The position numbers and the translations under genes are program-made. Source: Clostridia bacterium (GTDB lineage Bacteria > Bacillota > Clostridia > RGIG6154). Taken from it: a stretch of DNA of 64,000 nt. Below are positions 17,919 through 28,964 of this stretch, in pieces. Location of the stretch: NCBI GenBank assembly GCA_017410375.1, contig JAFQQW010000021.1, positions 1 to 64,000 of the forward strand. Reading direction: 5' to 3'. How positions within the stretch are numbered: the stretch's first letter is position 1; each line of letters begins with the position of its first letter. The notes below the pieces were generated by a model. That model saw only the letters and a list, made by a program, of their open reading frames with translations. It had not been told where the DNA came from and searched no databases.

Positions 17919-20900
17919 TTATTTTTCTGCAGGATAAATTTTCAGCTCGAATTTATATGATCCGCTATCGGATGTAGCATAGTTAGAAAGGGGGACGTTT
18001 GACGGGTTCTCAATTACAATTGTAACCGATGCTTCGTCCCGGTTTTCCACATCAGTAATAAATGTTTCTATTTTAATTTCCTTGTCGCCGTCTTTCAGAA
18101 CACCACGAACGGGAAGTCCGGTCATGTCCTGTGCAGTACAGGAAACTGGAATTGCGGACTTATTAACCACAAAACGTATTTTGTTGAGCGGAACTTTCGA
18201 GCCCTGGAAGGTGTATTTCAGGTCAAAAGGATCAAAATTTGTTAATGACCCTTTGTATTCGGGCATTTCAACAGCTTCTGCTTCTTCAGATTCAGCCGTT
18301 TCAGTGAATTTAATTTCTTTTTCATCAGAAAGCGCACGGGTCATCAGCATACTGCCGCCCATATCTTTTTTCTCGCCTGAAACTGTTTCTGCTTCAATGG
18401 TGTATTTGAATTCCGAATCGGCATTCTCAACCTTAACAATAAATTCATAAGGGTACTGGGTGGTTGTAGCACTTTCGGTTTTGCCGTCTGCAGTGTATGT
18501 GAGTGTTACAGATTTCACATCCTTAGGTAAGCTTGTGATGTAAACATAAGCATAATAACTTTCGGGATGAATCTGCAGAACATACCCTTTTCCTGATTTA
18601 TGTGTCGATACGGTTGCACCTAATTCATAAGTGCCGTCTAAAGTATAACTGCTCTTTGCAAATGCAGGTGCTTTGATATCGGGCAATGCAATGGTTACAG
18701 CAACCAGATCCTTTGCAGGAACAGTTACATCAAATTTGCCGTCTGTAACCGTAATTCCGGATTTTTCGCCTTTTTCGTTGAATAAGGTTGCTTTACCGCT
18801 GTATGCTGTACCGCCAGGAATGCCTTCAAGCAGTGAAACGGTGGTTGTGACGTCTTTGTTGCTCTCATTCATGAGGGCGACGCCTAACAATCCGTCTTTT
18901 TTAGCCGCCATCCAGTCAATCTGAAGATTGCCGGAATCAATCGTGTTTTCTGCAAGATAGGGCCACATGTTGTCTTCACCGTAGAATGTGCCCGGCGCAT
19001 GACCGTATTGATGTGAGTTGAAGTAAGCATATCCTTGCTGGCGCAGAGCAGGGAAGCTGATGTTGCCATCAGACCATGCCATGGTCTGGGAAATTAAGAA
19101 TTCTTCCAGCATTGCCAGGAATGGCGGAATATGATGCCAGTAAATGGACGTGAAGTCAGGACCTTCGTACATATACTCGGGGAACTGTTCGTAGTCAGAG
19201 TAGAATGTGCGGTAATAGCCCGAATATGTGCCGAATCTGCCGATAATCGCATTTCTTGCAGCGGTTTCGTAAATGTCATTGCCGGTGTATGCGGAAAGTC
19301 TCACAAAATCACCTGCCCAATATTGCATGATGATGTTAGCAGAATCTCTGTCAAAGGTAGAGCTTTGTTCAAGACCTAAGCCGACTCTTGAGGAAATCCA
19401 CGCAGGCTTTAAGGCTTTCTTTTCGCGCAAAGGTGTGTTAAACCCTTCTGCACCGCGTTCACTGCCTACACGATAATGTTTGTCATCATACCAGAACATA
19501 CTTTCGGATTCTTTGTATTCAATACCGCCACCAACGTGCACAACCATCTCGGGATGGTCAATGTCGTTTGTCATAAGCTCTGTATTGCGTTTTTCACCGT
19601 CAATACCGGGAACCCATAACGCGGTTAACATTTTTTGCGCCACATGTTCCGCCGCGTCTAAATACTTTTTGTCCTTTGTCACATCGTAAATATCCATTAA
19701 GGATGCGATGTTTGGATAGTAGGAAATATAAATAAACGATTCCCATGCAGGCAAAGTTTCCGAAGTGCTGTATACATTTTTCTCTATAAATGTATCCGCT
19801 TTTTCAATGGCATTATCCAAATACTGTTTGTCACCTGTGAAAATATAAAGATTTAAATCGTTAGAGAAGTTTGCAACCGAGCCGTATTCGTTCACAACGC
19901 CTCTTTTGCCTTTTTCCAAACCTATACTGTAAAGGTAAGGAACGTTACCTCTCGTCATTTCGTACAAGCCGGCTGTAACGTTTAAATTGTATCCGTTTCG
20001 CGGTGTACCGATGACATCCGGATCTTTTTCAATTCGCTCCCAGTTACTGTTAGAGCCAAACTTTACTGTACCGTTGTTAAAATGCAGAGACGGTCTGGTT
20101 AAAAATGCCGCTAAAGTTGGAATAGCTCTTCTTTCGAGCATTTCTTCGTCCTCGGAAAGGAGATATGCCTGCAGGGCAATCATAGGATTAGCTTCTGAAA
20201 CGGTTGTAACCGATTCCATATTATAATGCCCTTTCATTTCGTTATCCCAACCACTTTGCTTATCGTCAAGCATTAAGTTTCTGGTGTTGAAAATGGCATC
20301 ATTCAACGTAAAATAGGTATTTTGACGGTAATCGTCCACATCATATAAGCTTTCGGTGATGAATCTGTAATTTTCAAACCAATCCGAAACCGAGCTGATG
20401 ACACGGTATTTTAAAGTATGTGTTTCGCCTGCCGAAAGATTTGATGCTTCGCTGCCCAAAAGCGGTGCGAAAAGTGTACCCTTAAAGGTATTGCTCGGCG
20501 TTTTCATGTTGATACCAAACAGATTATTAAAGGGACGAATCCAGCGAAGCGGTATGTAGTCAGGTTCAACCACAACACCTTTGGTTATGGGCAAAGCACC
20601 ATATTTGTTGTTTTCAGCTAAAGTATAACACCCCATAGGTGTAAACAAAAACTGTTCGGAAATCAGACTGATTTCGTCGTGAATTCGTTTTTCGATGGTA
20701 CGGAACGGCGCAACTGCATCGGTAAACTCTTCGTACCCGAAATCGCCGCCTTCCCAGCAAGCAACCGAATAAAAACCATCATCCTTTGCTGTGATGCTTA
20801 CACTGACCAAAGGAGCTTCTGTTTCATCTAAAGTCCATGTGGAGGAAAGTGTAGCACCGTTTTCTTCACCAAAATATAATGTTACGTAATTTCCGTTTTG

Positions 20901-23216
20901 TGTGTAATCGGTGGGTACATACCATTTGCCGTTTCCCGCCTGATATGGATTTAAACCGAAATAATGTTCGCTTGTTCCGTCGGGCAGATTGCGTGTTGTT
21001 TCAAACGAAATCAAATCAGAAGCACCGTTGCTTTTAGCTTTGTCTGCACGCAAAACATAGTGTCCGAGCTCTTCATTTCTTGCATTAGTCATAACCCAAC
21101 TGCCGTCAGGGGCTTTGCTGTAAATTTCGTTTTGCACAACCTGACCTTTAGAGGTGGGAACCTTATAAAATACAACCTTAACCTTATCATTTTCTAAAAC
21201 AGCCGATTCGGTGGGCTGATTCTGTTCGGTCGCGTATTTCGGGAATGCCAGAACCGCCTTGTTGACCATAGATACGGGAGCAGCCATTGTTTTTAAGGTC
21301 GTAAAGTTTTCGGGAGGCAGGAAGGTGTCACTCTTACACAACAAAATAGAATCACATCTTGCGTAAAAGCCCGAGCTGTCAATTAAGGATAAAGTGTGCT
21401 TACCGGGTGTAAGTGTTACTTTTTCAGGTGCCTTTGCCCATCTGTAACCGTCACCACCGTGGGTACCGAATTTGTGTGAAACAACTTTGTCATCAATGCC
21501 AACGTTGAAAAATCTGTCGCCCTGCTGATTGGTGGAAAAGTCTCTGGAGCGCACCCATACATTGTATTCGCCGCCGTCTGTAATTTCAAATCCCGCTTTT
21601 GCAGGCTTAGCGCTGGAAGCGTCAGCATCTTTAATGGTTGAGCCGGTTGCAAGGCCTTGGAAAGCAGTGGTTTCAAAGGCACCGGTTGCGTTTAAATCAA
21701 ATGTCCATGTTCCAAGCTCTGTAAAAGAGGAAGGTCTGAACCACAGCATTTCTTCGGGGATTGTCGCTAAAATGGTTACTGTATTTGTGTTTCCGTTCCA
21801 GTCAACAGATGCTCCAAGAGCTTCCGAAACAAAGCGGAGAGGAACCATTGTTCTGGAATTTACTAAGGTTGCAGGCTGGTCCAGTGTAACTGACTTGTCT
21901 TTAACCTGCGCCTGAGTGTCGTCAATAGTAAGACGGATGGGTGTACCGTTTCGATATCCGGTTGCAGTCTGAGATTCGTCATCCCATGAAACTGTACATC
22001 CCAATGCTTCAAAAATGGCACGGAAAGGTACCATGGTACGGTCGTTTATCAGTAAAGGATCTACATCAAAGTGCATATATTCTCCGTTTAATTTAACCGC
22101 AATCTCACTATCCGGTCTGTCAGCATCCGGAACAGAGGATTTTTGAGGTGCTTCATACATGCCGTCTTTGTAATTATTCTTTTTCAGATATTTAAACGCC
22201 TCAGGAGTATCAATAGGCGAAAAATCCGGATCATCTGTAATAATCAGCATGGACCATCTTGCATAGTGTGCTGAACTGTCCACAAGTTCTAATTCATATT
22301 CATCGCCAAAAATCGGAATAAAATCCGAGGTTTCCCAAAACCAGCCGTCATTGGTATGCGCTCCGAAAGTGTATTCCGTTGTACCGAGTTTAAAATCAAA
22401 ATAACGGGACCCCGGCTCTGATGTGTAATCCCGGCTTAAGCAATGTAATTTGTAGTTTCCGTCTTTTGGAATGACAATTTTTGTTTTTGCGGAAGCCGGT
22501 GCGGTGTTTCTGTCACTCTTACCTTTTAAGTAAAAATCCACATAACCGCCTGCATCATTTACGCCAACCTTCGTCCAGGTGCCAAGCTCGCCGAAATTGT
22601 CAGGTGTTACGGTAATATACGTCTTATCATCCTTAAAAGTGAGCGGATTTTCCAACGTATCAATAATGGTTATATCGGTTGCATCAAGCAAAGCCTTCAT
22701 GCCTGCGTGGTCGGAGGGTGGCGTTAAGCCTTGGTTTGTGGAAAGGATAATCCCCTGTACGCGTGCCCAGTATGCACCGGTGTCAGCAATCTTAAGAATA
22801 TTTTCTCCGGGTTTCAACTCCACTGTACCGGCTTTTATCCAGCTCCATGTATTCGAGCCGGTGTTTCCGATTTTTGTGTCCAGAAGCGTGCCGTTTACTT
22901 CAATATTGCAGTATCTGGTATCGGGTGCTTCGGTAAAATCGCGGGTTAATGCCCAAAGAGTATATGTGCCGGGATTCGGTGCTTCAAACCGAAGGGTGGC
23001 AGGCTCTGTTTTTTCAGGCTTCCTGTCCGGCGTTCCGACTAAAACCTCCAACATGGCCCCTTTGTCTGTTTCGTTCAAAATGCGCCAGGTTCCAAGACTC
23101 TCTTTAAAATCATTACCTCTGATGAAAATAGTGGTTTCATCGCTTGCAGACGCAGGAATACAAAGTAAAGATGTCAAAAAGCAAACGACCAGAAGTAACG
23201 CAACACTTTTTTTCAT
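17919..23216 (-). CDS. Giant secreted multidomain protein, probable polysaccharide-active enzyme
   Basis: A 1765-residue protein. A signal peptide (1-25, ending PASAS) is followed by two similar beta-sandwich-like modules at ~26-165 and ~190-330. A copper-amine-oxidase-N-like stalk domain sits at ~367-488 (RTMVPFRAIFEALG and RTMVPLRFVSEALG). A third copy of the first module spans ~490-627. A ~850-residue helical core (about 650-1500) suggests an (alpha/alpha)6 glycosidase- or lyase-like fold, and beta-rich domains lie at the C terminus. The modules share LGTW, RDF/RDY, RYF/RFF and a closing Y/FAR motif, as carbohydrate-binding domains do. The MKK start at 23216 follows AGAGGG; the frame extends 64 codons upstream without an RBS. 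It is divergent from an AraC gene. The catalytic family and substrate are not identified. Confidence 0.65.
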   Translation of the reverse strand: MKKSVALLLVVCFLTSLLCIPASASDETTIFIRGNDFKESLGTWRILNETDKGAMLEVLVGTPDRKPEKTEPATLRFEAPNPGTYTLWALTRDFTEAPDTRYCNIEVNGTLLDTKIGNTGSNTWSWIKAGTVELKPGENILKIADTGAYWARVQGIILSTNQGLTPPSDHAGMKALLDATDITIIDTLENPLTFKDDKTYITVTPDNFGELGTWTKVGVNDAGGYVDFYLKGKSDRNTAPASAKTKIVIPKDGNYKLHCLSRDYTSEPGSRYFDFKLGTTEYTFGAHTNDGWFWETSDFIPIFGDEYELELVDSSAHYARWSMLIITDDPDFSPIDTPEAFKYLKKNNYKDGMYEAPQKSSVPDADRPDSEIAVKLNGEYMHFDVDPLLINDRTMVPFRAIFEALGCTVSWDDESQTATGYRNGTPIRLTIDDTQAQVKDKSVTLDQPATLVNSRTMVPLRFVSEALGASVDWNGNTNTVTILATIPEEMLWFRPSSFTELGTWTFDLNATGAFETTAFQGLATGSTIKDADASSAKPAKAGFEITDGGEYNVWVRSRDFSTNQQGDRFFNVGIDDKVVSHKFGTHGGDGYRWAKAPEKVTLTPGKHTLSLIDSSGFYARCDSILLCKSDTFLPPENFTTLKTMAAPVSMVNKAVLAFPKYATEQNQPTESAVLENDKVKVVFYKVPTSKGQVVQNEIYSKAPDGSWVMTNARNEELGHYVLRADKAKSNGASDLISFETTRNLPDGTSEHYFGLNPYQAGNGKWYVPTDYTQNGNYVTLYFGEENGATLSSTWTLDETEAPLVSVSITAKDDGFYSVACWEGGDFGYEEFTDAVAPFRTIEKRIHDEISLISEQFLFTPMGCYTLAENNKYGALPITKGVVVEPDYIPLRWIRPFNNLFGINMKTPSNTFKGTLFAPLLGSEASNLSAGETHTLKYRVISSVSDWFENYRFITESLYDVDDYRQNTYFTLNDAIFNTRNLMLDDKQSGWDNEMKGHYNMESVTTVSEANPMIALQAYLLSEDEEMLERRAIPTLAAFLTRPSLHFNNGTVKFGSNSNWERIEKDPDVIGTPRNGYNLNVTAGLYEMTRGNVPYLYSIGLEKGKRGVVNEYGSVANFSNDLNLYIFTGDKQYLDNAIEKADTFIEKNVYSTSETLPAWESFIYISYYPNIASLMDIYDVTKDKKYLDAAEHVAQKMLTALWVPGIDGEKRNTELMTNDIDHPEMVVHVGGGIEYKESESMFWYDDKHYRVGSERGAEGFNTPLREKKALKPAWISSRVGLGLEQSSTFDRDSANIIMQYWAGDFVRLSAYTGNDIYETAARNAIIGRFGTYSGYYRTFYSDYEQFPEYMYEGPDFTSIYWHHIPPFLAMLEEFLISQTMAWSDGNISFPALRQQGYAYFNSHQYGHAPGTFYGEDNMWPYLAENTIDSGNLQIDWMAAKKDGLLGVALMNESNKDVTTTVSLLEGIPGGTAYSGKATLFNEKGEKSGITVTDGKFDVTVPAKDLVAVTIALPDIKAPAFAKSSYTLDGTYELGATVSTHKSGKGYVLQIHPESYYAYVYITSLPKDVKSVTLTYTADGKTESATTTQYPYEFIVKVENADSEFKYTIEAETVSGEKKDMGGSMLMTRALSDEKEIKFTETAESEEAEAVEMPEYKGSLTNFDPFDLKYTFQGSKVPLNKIRFVVNKSAIPVSCTAQDMTGLPVRGVLKDGDKEIKIETFITDVENRDEASVTIVIENPSNVPLSNYATSDSGSYKFELKIYPAEK

Positions 23217-23249
23217 TTTAATCCCTCTTTCTTTTTTATTCTTATTTTC

Positions 23250-23278
23250 ATTATAATAAAAAAATATTCTGTTTTCTA
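23250..23278 (-). promoter_or_regulatory. Promoter of the giant secreted-protein gene, weak -35
   Basis: Minus-strand TATAAT at 23255-23250 has no good -35 at 17 bp, as is usual for activator-dependent promoters. Direct repeats at 23287 and 23308 lie just upstream. Confidence 0.45.
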
Positions 23279-23308
23279 TTGCATTTTGTGACTTGTTTAT
23301 GTTAAAAT
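23279..23308 (+). promoter_or_regulatory. Promoter of the AraC-type gene
   Basis: TTGCAT (23279-23284), 18 bp, TAAAAT (23303-23308). One of the two TGTGACTTG repeats lies in the spacer and the other begins at the last base of the -10, so the product could repress its own gene. Confidence 0.45.
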
Positions 23309-23316
23309 GTGACTTG
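23287..23316. promoter_or_regulatory. Direct repeats TGTGACTTG, candidate AraC-type binding site
   Basis: Two exact 9-bp copies (23287-23295 and 23308-23316) lie 21 bp apart, two turns of the helix. They sit at about -44 to -73 for the minus-strand giant gene and overlap the AraC gene promoter. AraC-family proteins usually bind such same-face direct repeats. Confidence 0.5.
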
Positions 23317-23328
23317 AGGTGAAGTGAG

Positions 23329-24102
23329 TTGAAAGAGCTAAACAGAACAACAAGACTGCAAAACAAACATTTTAAGGATTTGAATCCGCTGGTTTTCGGG
23401 GAACACATCTGTCCGCCCGGACATTCCTCAAATGGCGAATCACCGTCTTACTTGCTGATTCATTATGTGATTTCGGGCAAAGGAACACTTTTTGCAGGTG
23501 ATAAAACCTATGAAATTTCTGCAGGGCAAGCCTTTATCAAACGACCGCATGAGGATGTCATTTATACCGCCGATGAAAAGAACCCCTGGCACTATTACTG
23601 GATTATTTTTGACGGGGAAATGAGCAGGCGCTTTCATGAAATGGAGCATGTCTTTTCTTGTCCGTCTTATGTTTTTGAAAACATGTCTAAAGTGTTTTCT
23701 TTAGATTCCTTACAGGAAGAACATTTAGCCTCGGGACTTTTTTCTCTGTACCGGGAAGCTTTTAAAGATAAAGAAGCAGACAATCCGGTTTTAAAAATCA
23801 AAAACTACATTGAGTTGTATTTTAATCAGCCCATCCGGGTTGAACACCTTGCCGAAATTGTAAATTTGAACCGAAACTATCTTTCGCGTATTTTTCATAA
23901 AGAAACCGGCATGAGTATGAAGGAATATTTAACGGATATACGCATGAAATATGCTGTCGAATGCTTAAAACATGGTATGTCGGTAGGCGAGACGGCTTCT
24001 GCACTGTCCTATACCGATCAGTTCATTTTCTCAAAAGCTTTTAAAAAGCATTACGGCGTTTCGCCCGTGGATTACCGCAAGCAGGCAAAACAAATGCTTT
24101 AA
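23329..24102 (+). CDS. AraC family transcriptional regulator (cupin sensor)
   Basis: A 257-residue protein. The N-terminal cupin-type ligand domain contains HYVISGKGTLFAGDKTYEISAGQAFI, and the C-terminal double helix-turn-helix reads RVEHLAEIVNLNRNYLSRIF then FSKAFKKHYGVSPVDYRKQ. The start is TTG at 23329, with GAGG nine bases upstream; no ATG fits. It is divergent from the giant secreted-protein gene and probably activates it in response to a sugar. It ends in a hairpin followed directly by a dispersed repeat. Confidence 0.85.
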   Translation: MKELNRTTRLQNKHFKDLNPLVFGEHICPPGHSSNGESPSYLLIHYVISGKGTLFAGDKTYEISAGQAFIKRPHEDVIYTADEKNPWHYYWIIFDGEMSRRFHEMEHVFSCPSYVFENMSKVFSLDSLQEEHLASGLFSLYREAFKDKEADNPVLKIKNYIELYFNQPIRVEHLAEIVNLNRNYLSRIFHKETGMSMKEYLTDIRMKYAVECLKHGMSVGETASALSYTDQFIFSKAFKKHYGVSPVDYRKQAKQML

Positions 24103-28817: not shown

Positions 28818-28846
28818 AGTATATCACATTTGATATGAAAATGCAA
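28818..28846 (-). promoter_or_regulatory. lysR promoter with the palindrome between -35 and -10
   Basis: Minus-strand TTGCAT (28846-28841), 17 bp, TATACT (28823-28818). ATATCA-N4-TGATAT (28821-28836) fills the spacer and overlaps the -10, an arrangement expected for autorepression. Confidence 0.6.
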
Positions 28847-28913
28847 GAATTTCTCTTTTAACTAAATATTATAAACGTTTGTTCCTTGAAACGCAACGCT
28901 TGTGCCGTGAGGG

Positions 28914-28942
28914 TTGACAGCATGTTTTGTGTTTGATATAAT
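28914..28942 (+). promoter_or_regulatory. Full-consensus sigma-A promoter
   Basis: TTGACA (28914-28919), exactly 17 bp, TATAAT (28937-28942). The most consensus-like promoter in this half of the window; it drives the SLH-domain protein. Confidence 0.85.
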
Positions 28943-28964
28943 TTAATCAGAAAGGATGGGAATG

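What the first reader, a model, noticed from the sequence alone, without database searches (positions are those of the whole stretch)
23217..23328. Direct repeats between the giant secreted-enzyme gene and its AraC neighbour
Two exact TGTGACTTG copies 21 bp apart lie just upstream of a -10 with a poor -35 for the enzyme gene, and at the same time overlap the AraC promoter. This geometry fits activation of the enzyme and feedback on the regulator.
Basis: partly seen in the sequence, partly recalled or inferred. Interest (0 to 1): 0.5.

Follow-up and report, generated by a model that had tools for sequence, protein, structure and literature searches.

The report
AraC operator doubling as regulator's promoter
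The two short repeats are part of a conserved landing site for the neighbouring AraC-type regulator, placed to switch on a large secreted carbohydrate enzyme while covering the regulator's own promoter, and the regulator belongs to a group that normally controls alpha-galactosidase genes.

Summary
Both TGTGACTTG copies are real and exactly 21 bp apart. The interpretation (AraC operator, enzyme activation plus feedback) is supported but imprecise. The conserved unit is a 39-bp tandem site on the minus strand (23313-23275): two half-sites like ACATTWTnnCAWW, 21 bp apart. The exact 9-mers cover only part of it, including its variable edge. A motif learned from 44 other AraC-divergent intergenic regions, without this genus pair, scores the site 30.6 bits; the next best in 64 kb scores 9.4. 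In 25 of 34 such sites (11 families of the class) the divergent gene's -10 lies exactly 19 bp past the site, as here, so the site ends 4 bp inside the -35: AraI-like class II geometry. In 19 of 34 the regulator's own predicted -35/-10 lie inside the site, so binding should shut its own promoter. The regulator nests in a clade whose usual divergent target is a GH4 alpha-galactosidase (26 of 46 targets; three more resemble GH36). Here, and in one sister genome, the target is instead a member of an expanded family of secreted six-hairpin CAZyme-like proteins (41 ORFs in this genome). Effector and expression are untested. Mechanistically a new member of a known kind; the target swap is the interesting part.

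The parts
17919..23216 (-). Large secreted enzyme gene (1765 aa; signal peptide by eye; Cu_amine_oxidN1 domain at residues 376-482; residues 620-1600 model as beta-supersandwich plus six-hairpin barrel)
23222..23228 (-). Enzyme ribosome-binding site AGAGGGA
   Evidence: read from the sequence
23250..23255 (-). Enzyme -10 TATAAT, 19 bp past the operator as in 25 of 34 sites
23273..23278 (-). Enzyme -35 position TAGAAA (4 of 6), overlapped 4 bp by the operator
   Evidence: for the operator end
23275..23313 (-). Operator, 39 bp: GTCACATTTTAACATAAACAAGTCACAAAATGCAATAGA
   Evidence: (30.6 bits, motif trained without it)
23297..23313 (-). Regulator-proximal half-site (GTCACATTTTAACATAA)
23276..23292 (-). 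Enzyme-proximal half-site (GTCACAAAATGCAATAG)
23287..23295 (+). First exact TGTGACTTG of the finding
23308..23316 (+). Second exact TGTGACTTG of the finding
23279..23284 (+). AraC -35 TTGCAT, inside the enzyme-proximal half-site
23303..23308 (+). AraC -10 TAAAAT, inside the regulator-proximal half-site
23316..23322 (+). AraC ribosome-binding site GAGGTGA
   Evidence: read from the sequence
23329..24102 (+). AraC-family regulator (257 aa, TTG start; AraC_binding and HTH_18 domains)

Best explanation
The 112-bp gap holds one operator for a dimer of the divergent AraC-family protein: two half-sites in tandem, 21 bp (two helical turns) apart, 23313-23275 on the minus strand. When its sugar ligand is bound, the dimer sits on both half-sites with its downstream subunit 4 bp into the enzyme's -35 and recruits RNA polymerase to the enzyme promoter (inferred, class II activation as at E. 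coli araBAD). The same 39 bp contain the -35 and -10 of the regulator's own promoter on the other strand, so the bound dimer shuts off its own gene (inferred, steric autorepression). Shown: the site, its conservation across homologous regulators, its fixed distance to the target -10 and its overlap with the regulator's predicted promoter. Inferred: binding, direction of the effect, and ligand. The most likely ligand is an alpha-galactoside or galactose, because the regulator nests in a clade mostly divergent from alpha-galactosidases; the enzyme would then act on a galactose-containing glycan.
For: Motif trained on 44 IGs without the window or G001 scores the site 30.6 bits, next best in 64 kb 9.4; EM total 1066 for real against 454-497 for 8 shuffled sets. 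A profile of 27 sites ranks it first in the 2.77-Mb genome, E 1.5e-5. The target -10 lies at offset 19 in 25 of 34 sites, control 0.41 per offset, in 11 families; the -10 is not part of the motif, and both held-out sites obey. 21-bp self-similarity over 46 IGs: Z 9.15, next spacing 2.57; AraC-free genomes give 0.9-2.7 at 21 bp. AraC -10 at one fixed position inside the site in 19 of 34. Tree: the window AraC lies in a starred 33-row clade with 23 GH4 neighbours. GH4 targets confirmed in 4 of 4 tested by Pfam and NCBIfam, 26 of 46 by phmmer. Nearly invariant ligand-domain residues across the clade.
Against: No binding or expression data. The distal A-box is degraded in G001 (GATACA), and 12 of 46 IGs have no site of 20 bits or more. 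In 9 of 34 the target -10 is not at offset 19 by the strict rule. Seven rows closest to the window in the tree all have non-GH4 targets, so ligand inheritance is uncertain; one of them pairs with a GH36-like gene and one with GH28. The AraC promoter of the window is a weak match (8 of 12), and the strand-wide best promoter in G001 lies outside the site. The sites come from related regulators and are not fully independent.
Confidence: 0.75

Rival explanations
1. The conservation reflects only the regulator's own core promoter; the 21-bp repeat is incidental and no AraC dimer binds there.
For: Much of the motif (TTGCAA/TTGCAT and TAWAAT on the AraC strand) is promoter sequence.
Against: The C and A of the A-box (34 of 34, 34 of 34) lie downstream of the AraC -10, and C at position 25 (32 of 34) lies in its spacer; 21-bp periodicity and the fixed 19-bp distance to the other gene's -10 are not explained by that promoter.
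Confidence: 0.1
2. The AraC protein is a repressor of both genes: the dimer overlaps both promoters and ligand releases it.
For: The site overlaps the enzyme -35 by 4 bp and the AraC promoter completely; the enzyme promoter matches 10 of 12.
Against: A fixed 19-bp spacing, same face and tandem orientation, is demanded by activation and not by repression; -35 hexamers of 28 such target promoters average 3.2 of 6 matches, close to the 2.6 expected by chance.
Confidence: 0.12
3. The TGTGA elements are sites of a CRP/FNR-type regulator.
For: TGTGA is the CRP half-site core (recalled).
Against: The two copies are direct, not inverted. TGTGA-N6-TCACA with up to 2 mismatches has 32 matches in the window, 31.9 expected, and none in the intergenic region.
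Confidence: 0.02
4. A different AraC protein of the genome (115 HTH_18 matches) acts on the site, the neighbour being a bystander.
For: Many AraC proteins, and 21-bp repeats also lie upstream of enzyme paralogs without an adjacent AraC.
Against: The site type follows this AraC clade across families, whatever the target gene, and the divergent gene pair is conserved in G001 with AraC but with another enzyme paralog.
Confidence: 0.07

Closest known systems
E. coli AraC at araBAD (I1-I2 half-sites)
   Same: Two direct-repeat half-sites near -52.5 that partly overlap the -35 (passage in PMC7408454); here the centre of the site is about 51 bp upstream of the presumed start (from coordinates). Divergent regulator gene.
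   Different: No second distant half-site for looping was looked for or seen; regulator and enzyme share one operator, which also holds the regulator's core promoter. NCBIfam AraC equivalog 76.3 bits against cut-off 208.
E. coli MelR / melAB
   Same: AraC-family regulator divergent from a GH4 alpha-galactosidase, the usual arrangement of this clade; autorepression of melR is known from a title in the reference list of PMC12825309, the rest is recalled.
   Different: MelR equivalog model 48.6 bits against cut-off 253. In the window the target is not an alpha-galactosidase but an unassigned secreted six-hairpin protein.
Pseudomonas fluorescens MtlR at PmtlE
   Same: Two similar 15-bp blocks with direct repeats at -72 to -58 and -50 to -36, shown by mutation to be needed for activation (passages in PMC4514859), 22 bp apart.
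   Different: Other phylum, other ligand; no overlap with a divergent regulator promoter was read there.

Membership tests
AraC/XylS family regulator | C-terminal double helix-turn-helix domain | tested here: met
   HTH_18 75.7 bits (cut-off 33.6)
AraC/XylS family regulator | N-terminal AraC-type sugar-binding domain | tested here: met
   AraC_binding 59.1 bits (cut-off 21.1); PDB match of the N-terminal part to BgaR
AraC-type class II activator site | Two half-sites in tandem, about 21 bp apart | tested here: met
AraC-type class II activator site | Downstream half-site overlaps the target -35 at fixed phase | tested here: met
   offset 19 to -10 in 25 of 34, window included
AraC-type class II activator site | Ligand-dependent binding and activation | not testable with these tools
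   needs protein and expression data
E. coli AraC orthology group (NF007860) | Curated model score | tested here: not met
   76.3 against 208 bits
MelR orthology group (NF007693) | Curated model score | tested here: not met
   48.6 against 253 bits
Clade of GH4 alpha-galactosidase-linked AraC proteins of this class | Position in the AraC tree | tested here: met
   33-row clade 100/98 with 23 GH4-linked rows
Clade of GH4 alpha-galactosidase-linked AraC proteins of this class | Divergent GH4 gene | tested here: not met
   The window's divergent gene is the large secreted enzyme
CRP-type site | Inverted TGTGA-N6-TCACA | tested here: not met

The most novel reading that the evidence does not exclude
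In this genus the expansion of a secreted CAZyme-like family (41 ORFs in this genome) went with the capture of ready-made sensor cassettes: AraC gene, operator and built-in divergent promoter lifted from other sugar operons and set in front of enzyme copies, so that different copies answer to different glycans. The window's cassette would come from an alpha-galactosidase operon and predicts a galactosyl-containing substrate.
Probability: 0.35. Interest if true: 0.65.

Novelty: new member of a known kind. Interest (0 to 1): 0.42.

Why it matters
The conserved 39-bp site gives a testable operator for a clade of AraC regulators divergent from alpha-galactosidases in at least 14 families of the class, for which six literature searches brought no description. 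It also offers a regulatory clue (galactosides) to the substrate of an unassigned secreted enzyme family, and a clear example of a regulator keeping its operator and promoter geometry while its target gene is exchanged.

Tried and rejected
CRP/FNR-type site: direct, not inverted, copies; no match in the gap. Exact 9-mer pair as the conserved unit: only one exact pair in the genome with 3 mismatches allowed (two further matches with 3 mismatches, control 1), and the distal copy is not kept in G001. Regulon beyond the neighbour: profile search of the own genome gave the window site first and nothing else convincing (next hit E 0.002, partial, in a stretch with recombinase-like ORFs; only 150 of 2113 first-look candidates were scored). 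Own regulator with the enzyme's closest relatives: the G001 enzyme relative that is 60% identical has no adjacent AraC, and of 80 loci with enzyme relatives in other genomes 15 had any AraC-type gene in the stretch held. Identity of the enzyme: no PDB sequence match; profile search gives weak matches to GH76 and other six-hairpin enzymes, Pfam below cut-off to GH127, fold comparison best Z 16.8 to a galactosaminidase beta-supersandwich region and 16 to epimerase/GH76 barrels: fold only, no family assigned.

A first control failed: 140-bp upstream regions taken from the same loci also showed Z about 8 at 21 bp. Splitting them gave 8.75 for 47 enzyme genes, 5.81 for 28 AraC genes, 5.55 for 102 others and 4.05 for 60 random AT-rich pieces, so the genome is not a neutral background; AraC-free genomes gave 1.34, 1.59 and 1.66 per genome (36, 6 and 32 regions) and 2.67 and 0.90 for pooled halves of 47 and 27. 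The other 14 enzyme/AraC pairs together give Z 5.27 at 21 bp (23 bp: 3.19), but only 4 of 14 exceed z 2 alone, so a 21-bp repeat is not shown for every pair.

Rows dropped: of 71 AraC loci, L208 had no AraC match; of the remaining 70, 46 had a divergent neighbour within 260 bp after removing one double (L013 = L178) and went into the counts. Of 34 sites of 20 bits or more, 27 built the profile R1: window and L005 held out, L148 (near copy), L184, L195, L196 and L204 (more distant) left out.

Full report
1. The observation. TGTGACTTG lies at 23287-23295 and 23308-23316, 21 bp apart start to start, the only exact copies in the window. The gap between the enzyme ATG (23216, minus) and the AraC TTG (23329, plus) is 112 bp and 24% G+C. 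An exact repeat of this quality at exactly 21 bp appeared in 1 of 5000 dinucleotide shuffles, at any spacing in 40 of 5000. So the spacing, not the repeat alone, is unusual.

2. Neighbours. The plus-strand gene is an AraC-family protein with AraC_binding and HTH_18 domains. The minus-strand gene encodes 1765 aa with a signal peptide by eye and a Cu_amine_oxidN1 domain. Its central 981 residues were modelled with 22 sequences (mean pLDDT 86, pTM 0.89): a beta-supersandwich, a six-hairpin barrel and beta domains, fold-like galactosaminidase and GH76/epimerase structures. No CAZy family could be assigned. It is one of 41 related ORFs in this genome (my count of the rows; 48 matching pieces). G001 has many, G002 a few and G003-G005 none. 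Relatives occur in Paenibacillus at about 50% identity.

3. Comparison in related genomes. The AraC homolog of G001 (54%) is also divergent from an enzyme, but from a different paralog, 37-38% identical to the window's. The intergenic block ACATTTTAACATAAAMAWGTCACAAAAYGCAATAGRAAA is kept, while the distal 9-mer is not. The enzyme's own closest relative in G001 (60%) has no adjacent AraC. The operator therefore stays with the regulator.

4. Class-wide footprint. AraC homologs with E at most 1e-30 were found in 56 of 391 genomes. Of 71 loci read, 70 gave an AraC match, and 46 had a divergent neighbour within 260 bp. In 26 of 46 that neighbour is a GH4 enzyme (phmmer); 4 of 4 tested passed the NCBIfam alpha-galactosidase model and Pfam GH4. 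Three more are GH36-like, two of them by Pfam; one is GH28. Over the 46 gaps, self-similarity at 21 bp stands alone (Z 9.15, next spacing 2.57). Without window and G001 it is 8.74.

5. Motif. EM on 44 gaps (window and G001 left out) gave at.ACATTATaACAtATtTtt.t.ACATTaT.CaATtt. with 22.9 bits of information; shuffled sets reach less than half the total score. The window site, minus strand 23313-23275, scores 30.6 bits, and the next best in both strands of 64 kb scores 9.4. A 64-position profile from 27 sites puts the window site first in the own genome (E 1.5e-5; 3.6e-7 in the window). Thirty-four of 46 gaps hold a site of 20 bits or more, in 14 families; 12 do not.

6. Geometry. In 25 of 34 sites a -10 with at least 5 of 6 matches starts exactly 19 bp after the 39-mer, in 11 families; the control is 0.41 per offset. 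The -10 was no part of the motif. Both held-out sites (window, G001) obey. With a 17-bp spacer the operator ends 4 bp inside the -35, here 23278-23275. On the other strand the best promoter of the regulator has its -10 at one fixed position inside the site in 19 of 34 (-35 also inside, 18-bp spacer in nearly all), and at other positions in the other 15, four of them outside the site. In the window these are TTGCAT 23279-23284 and TAAAAT 23303-23308.

7. Descent. In a tree of 59 AraC proteins the window AraC and its G001 partner pair at 100/98. They lie within a 7-row clade without GH4 targets (100/91), which lies within a 33-row clade with 23 GH4 targets (100/98). Most AraC proteins next to other enzyme paralogs fall outside that clade; the label 'enzyme neighbour' needs at least 3 changes on the tree. 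Some of those rows sit on long branches and their places are unsure. Ligand-domain residues such as P20, G24, H45, G50, G52, F69, P86, W87, Y89 and W91 are nearly invariant over the 33 rows, which is why a galactoside ligand is my best guess, not a result.

8. Mechanism, shown and inferred. Shown by sequence: tandem half-sites, conservation, fixed phase to the enzyme -10, coincidence with the regulator's predicted core promoter. Inferred from established AraC-family behaviour: dimer binding, activation of the enzyme by contact with polymerase at the -35, steric repression of the regulator's own promoter. At araBAD two direct-repeat half-sites centred near -52.5 overlap the -35 (passage of PMC7408454); MtlR of P. 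fluorescens uses two 15-bp blocks 22 bp apart (passages of PMC4514859).

9. Against. No experiment; one strand-wide best promoter (G001) lies outside the site; 12 of 46 gaps lack a strong site; the sites are related by descent; a first background control inside this AraC-rich genome was not neutral and had to be replaced by AraC-free genomes; for other enzyme/AraC pairs only 4 of 14 show z above 2 at 21 bp.

10. Literature. Searches (listings only) showed no paper on this operator or on AraC regulators of GH4 alpha-galactosidases in Clostridia; subscription journals are mostly not held, so this is weak evidence. Passages were read in PMC7408454, PMC12825309, PMC4266540 and PMC4514859.

Noticed in passing
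own genome G000 (41 ORFs), e.g. window 17919-23216 and contig C21 66896-71704 just past the window: One genome of 2.77 Mb carries 41 related ORFs of a secreted six-hairpin protein, mostly 1500-2300 aa, plus 115 AraC-type HTH matches.
   Followed up: partly
L103 (G000 C16) 2823-2939: The gap of another enzyme/AraC pair holds the strongest 21-bp repeat seen, TTTTTTGRAACWGATTTAC twice, unlike the window's site.
   Followed up: partly
upstream 140 bp of 47 enzyme genes in G000-G002 loci: 21-bp self-similarity is enriched (Z 8.75; 12 of 47 above z 2) even where no AraC is adjacent.
   Followed up: partly
window 28828-28955: Between a LysR-type gene and an SLH-domain gene two 17-mers 21 bp apart match at 13 of 17 positions (AACGTTTGTTCCTTGAA / AACGCTTGTGCCGTGAG).
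   Followed up: no
L115 (G001 C84), just upstream of 2911: The 60% relative of the window enzyme has its own direct repeat CGGATTGT about 30 bp apart before a TATAAT.
   Followed up: no
L330 (G047 C64 220952-221013) and L208 (G047 C11 19671-19733): Good matches to the operator profile without an AraC match in the stretch held: possible targets in trans.
   Followed up: no
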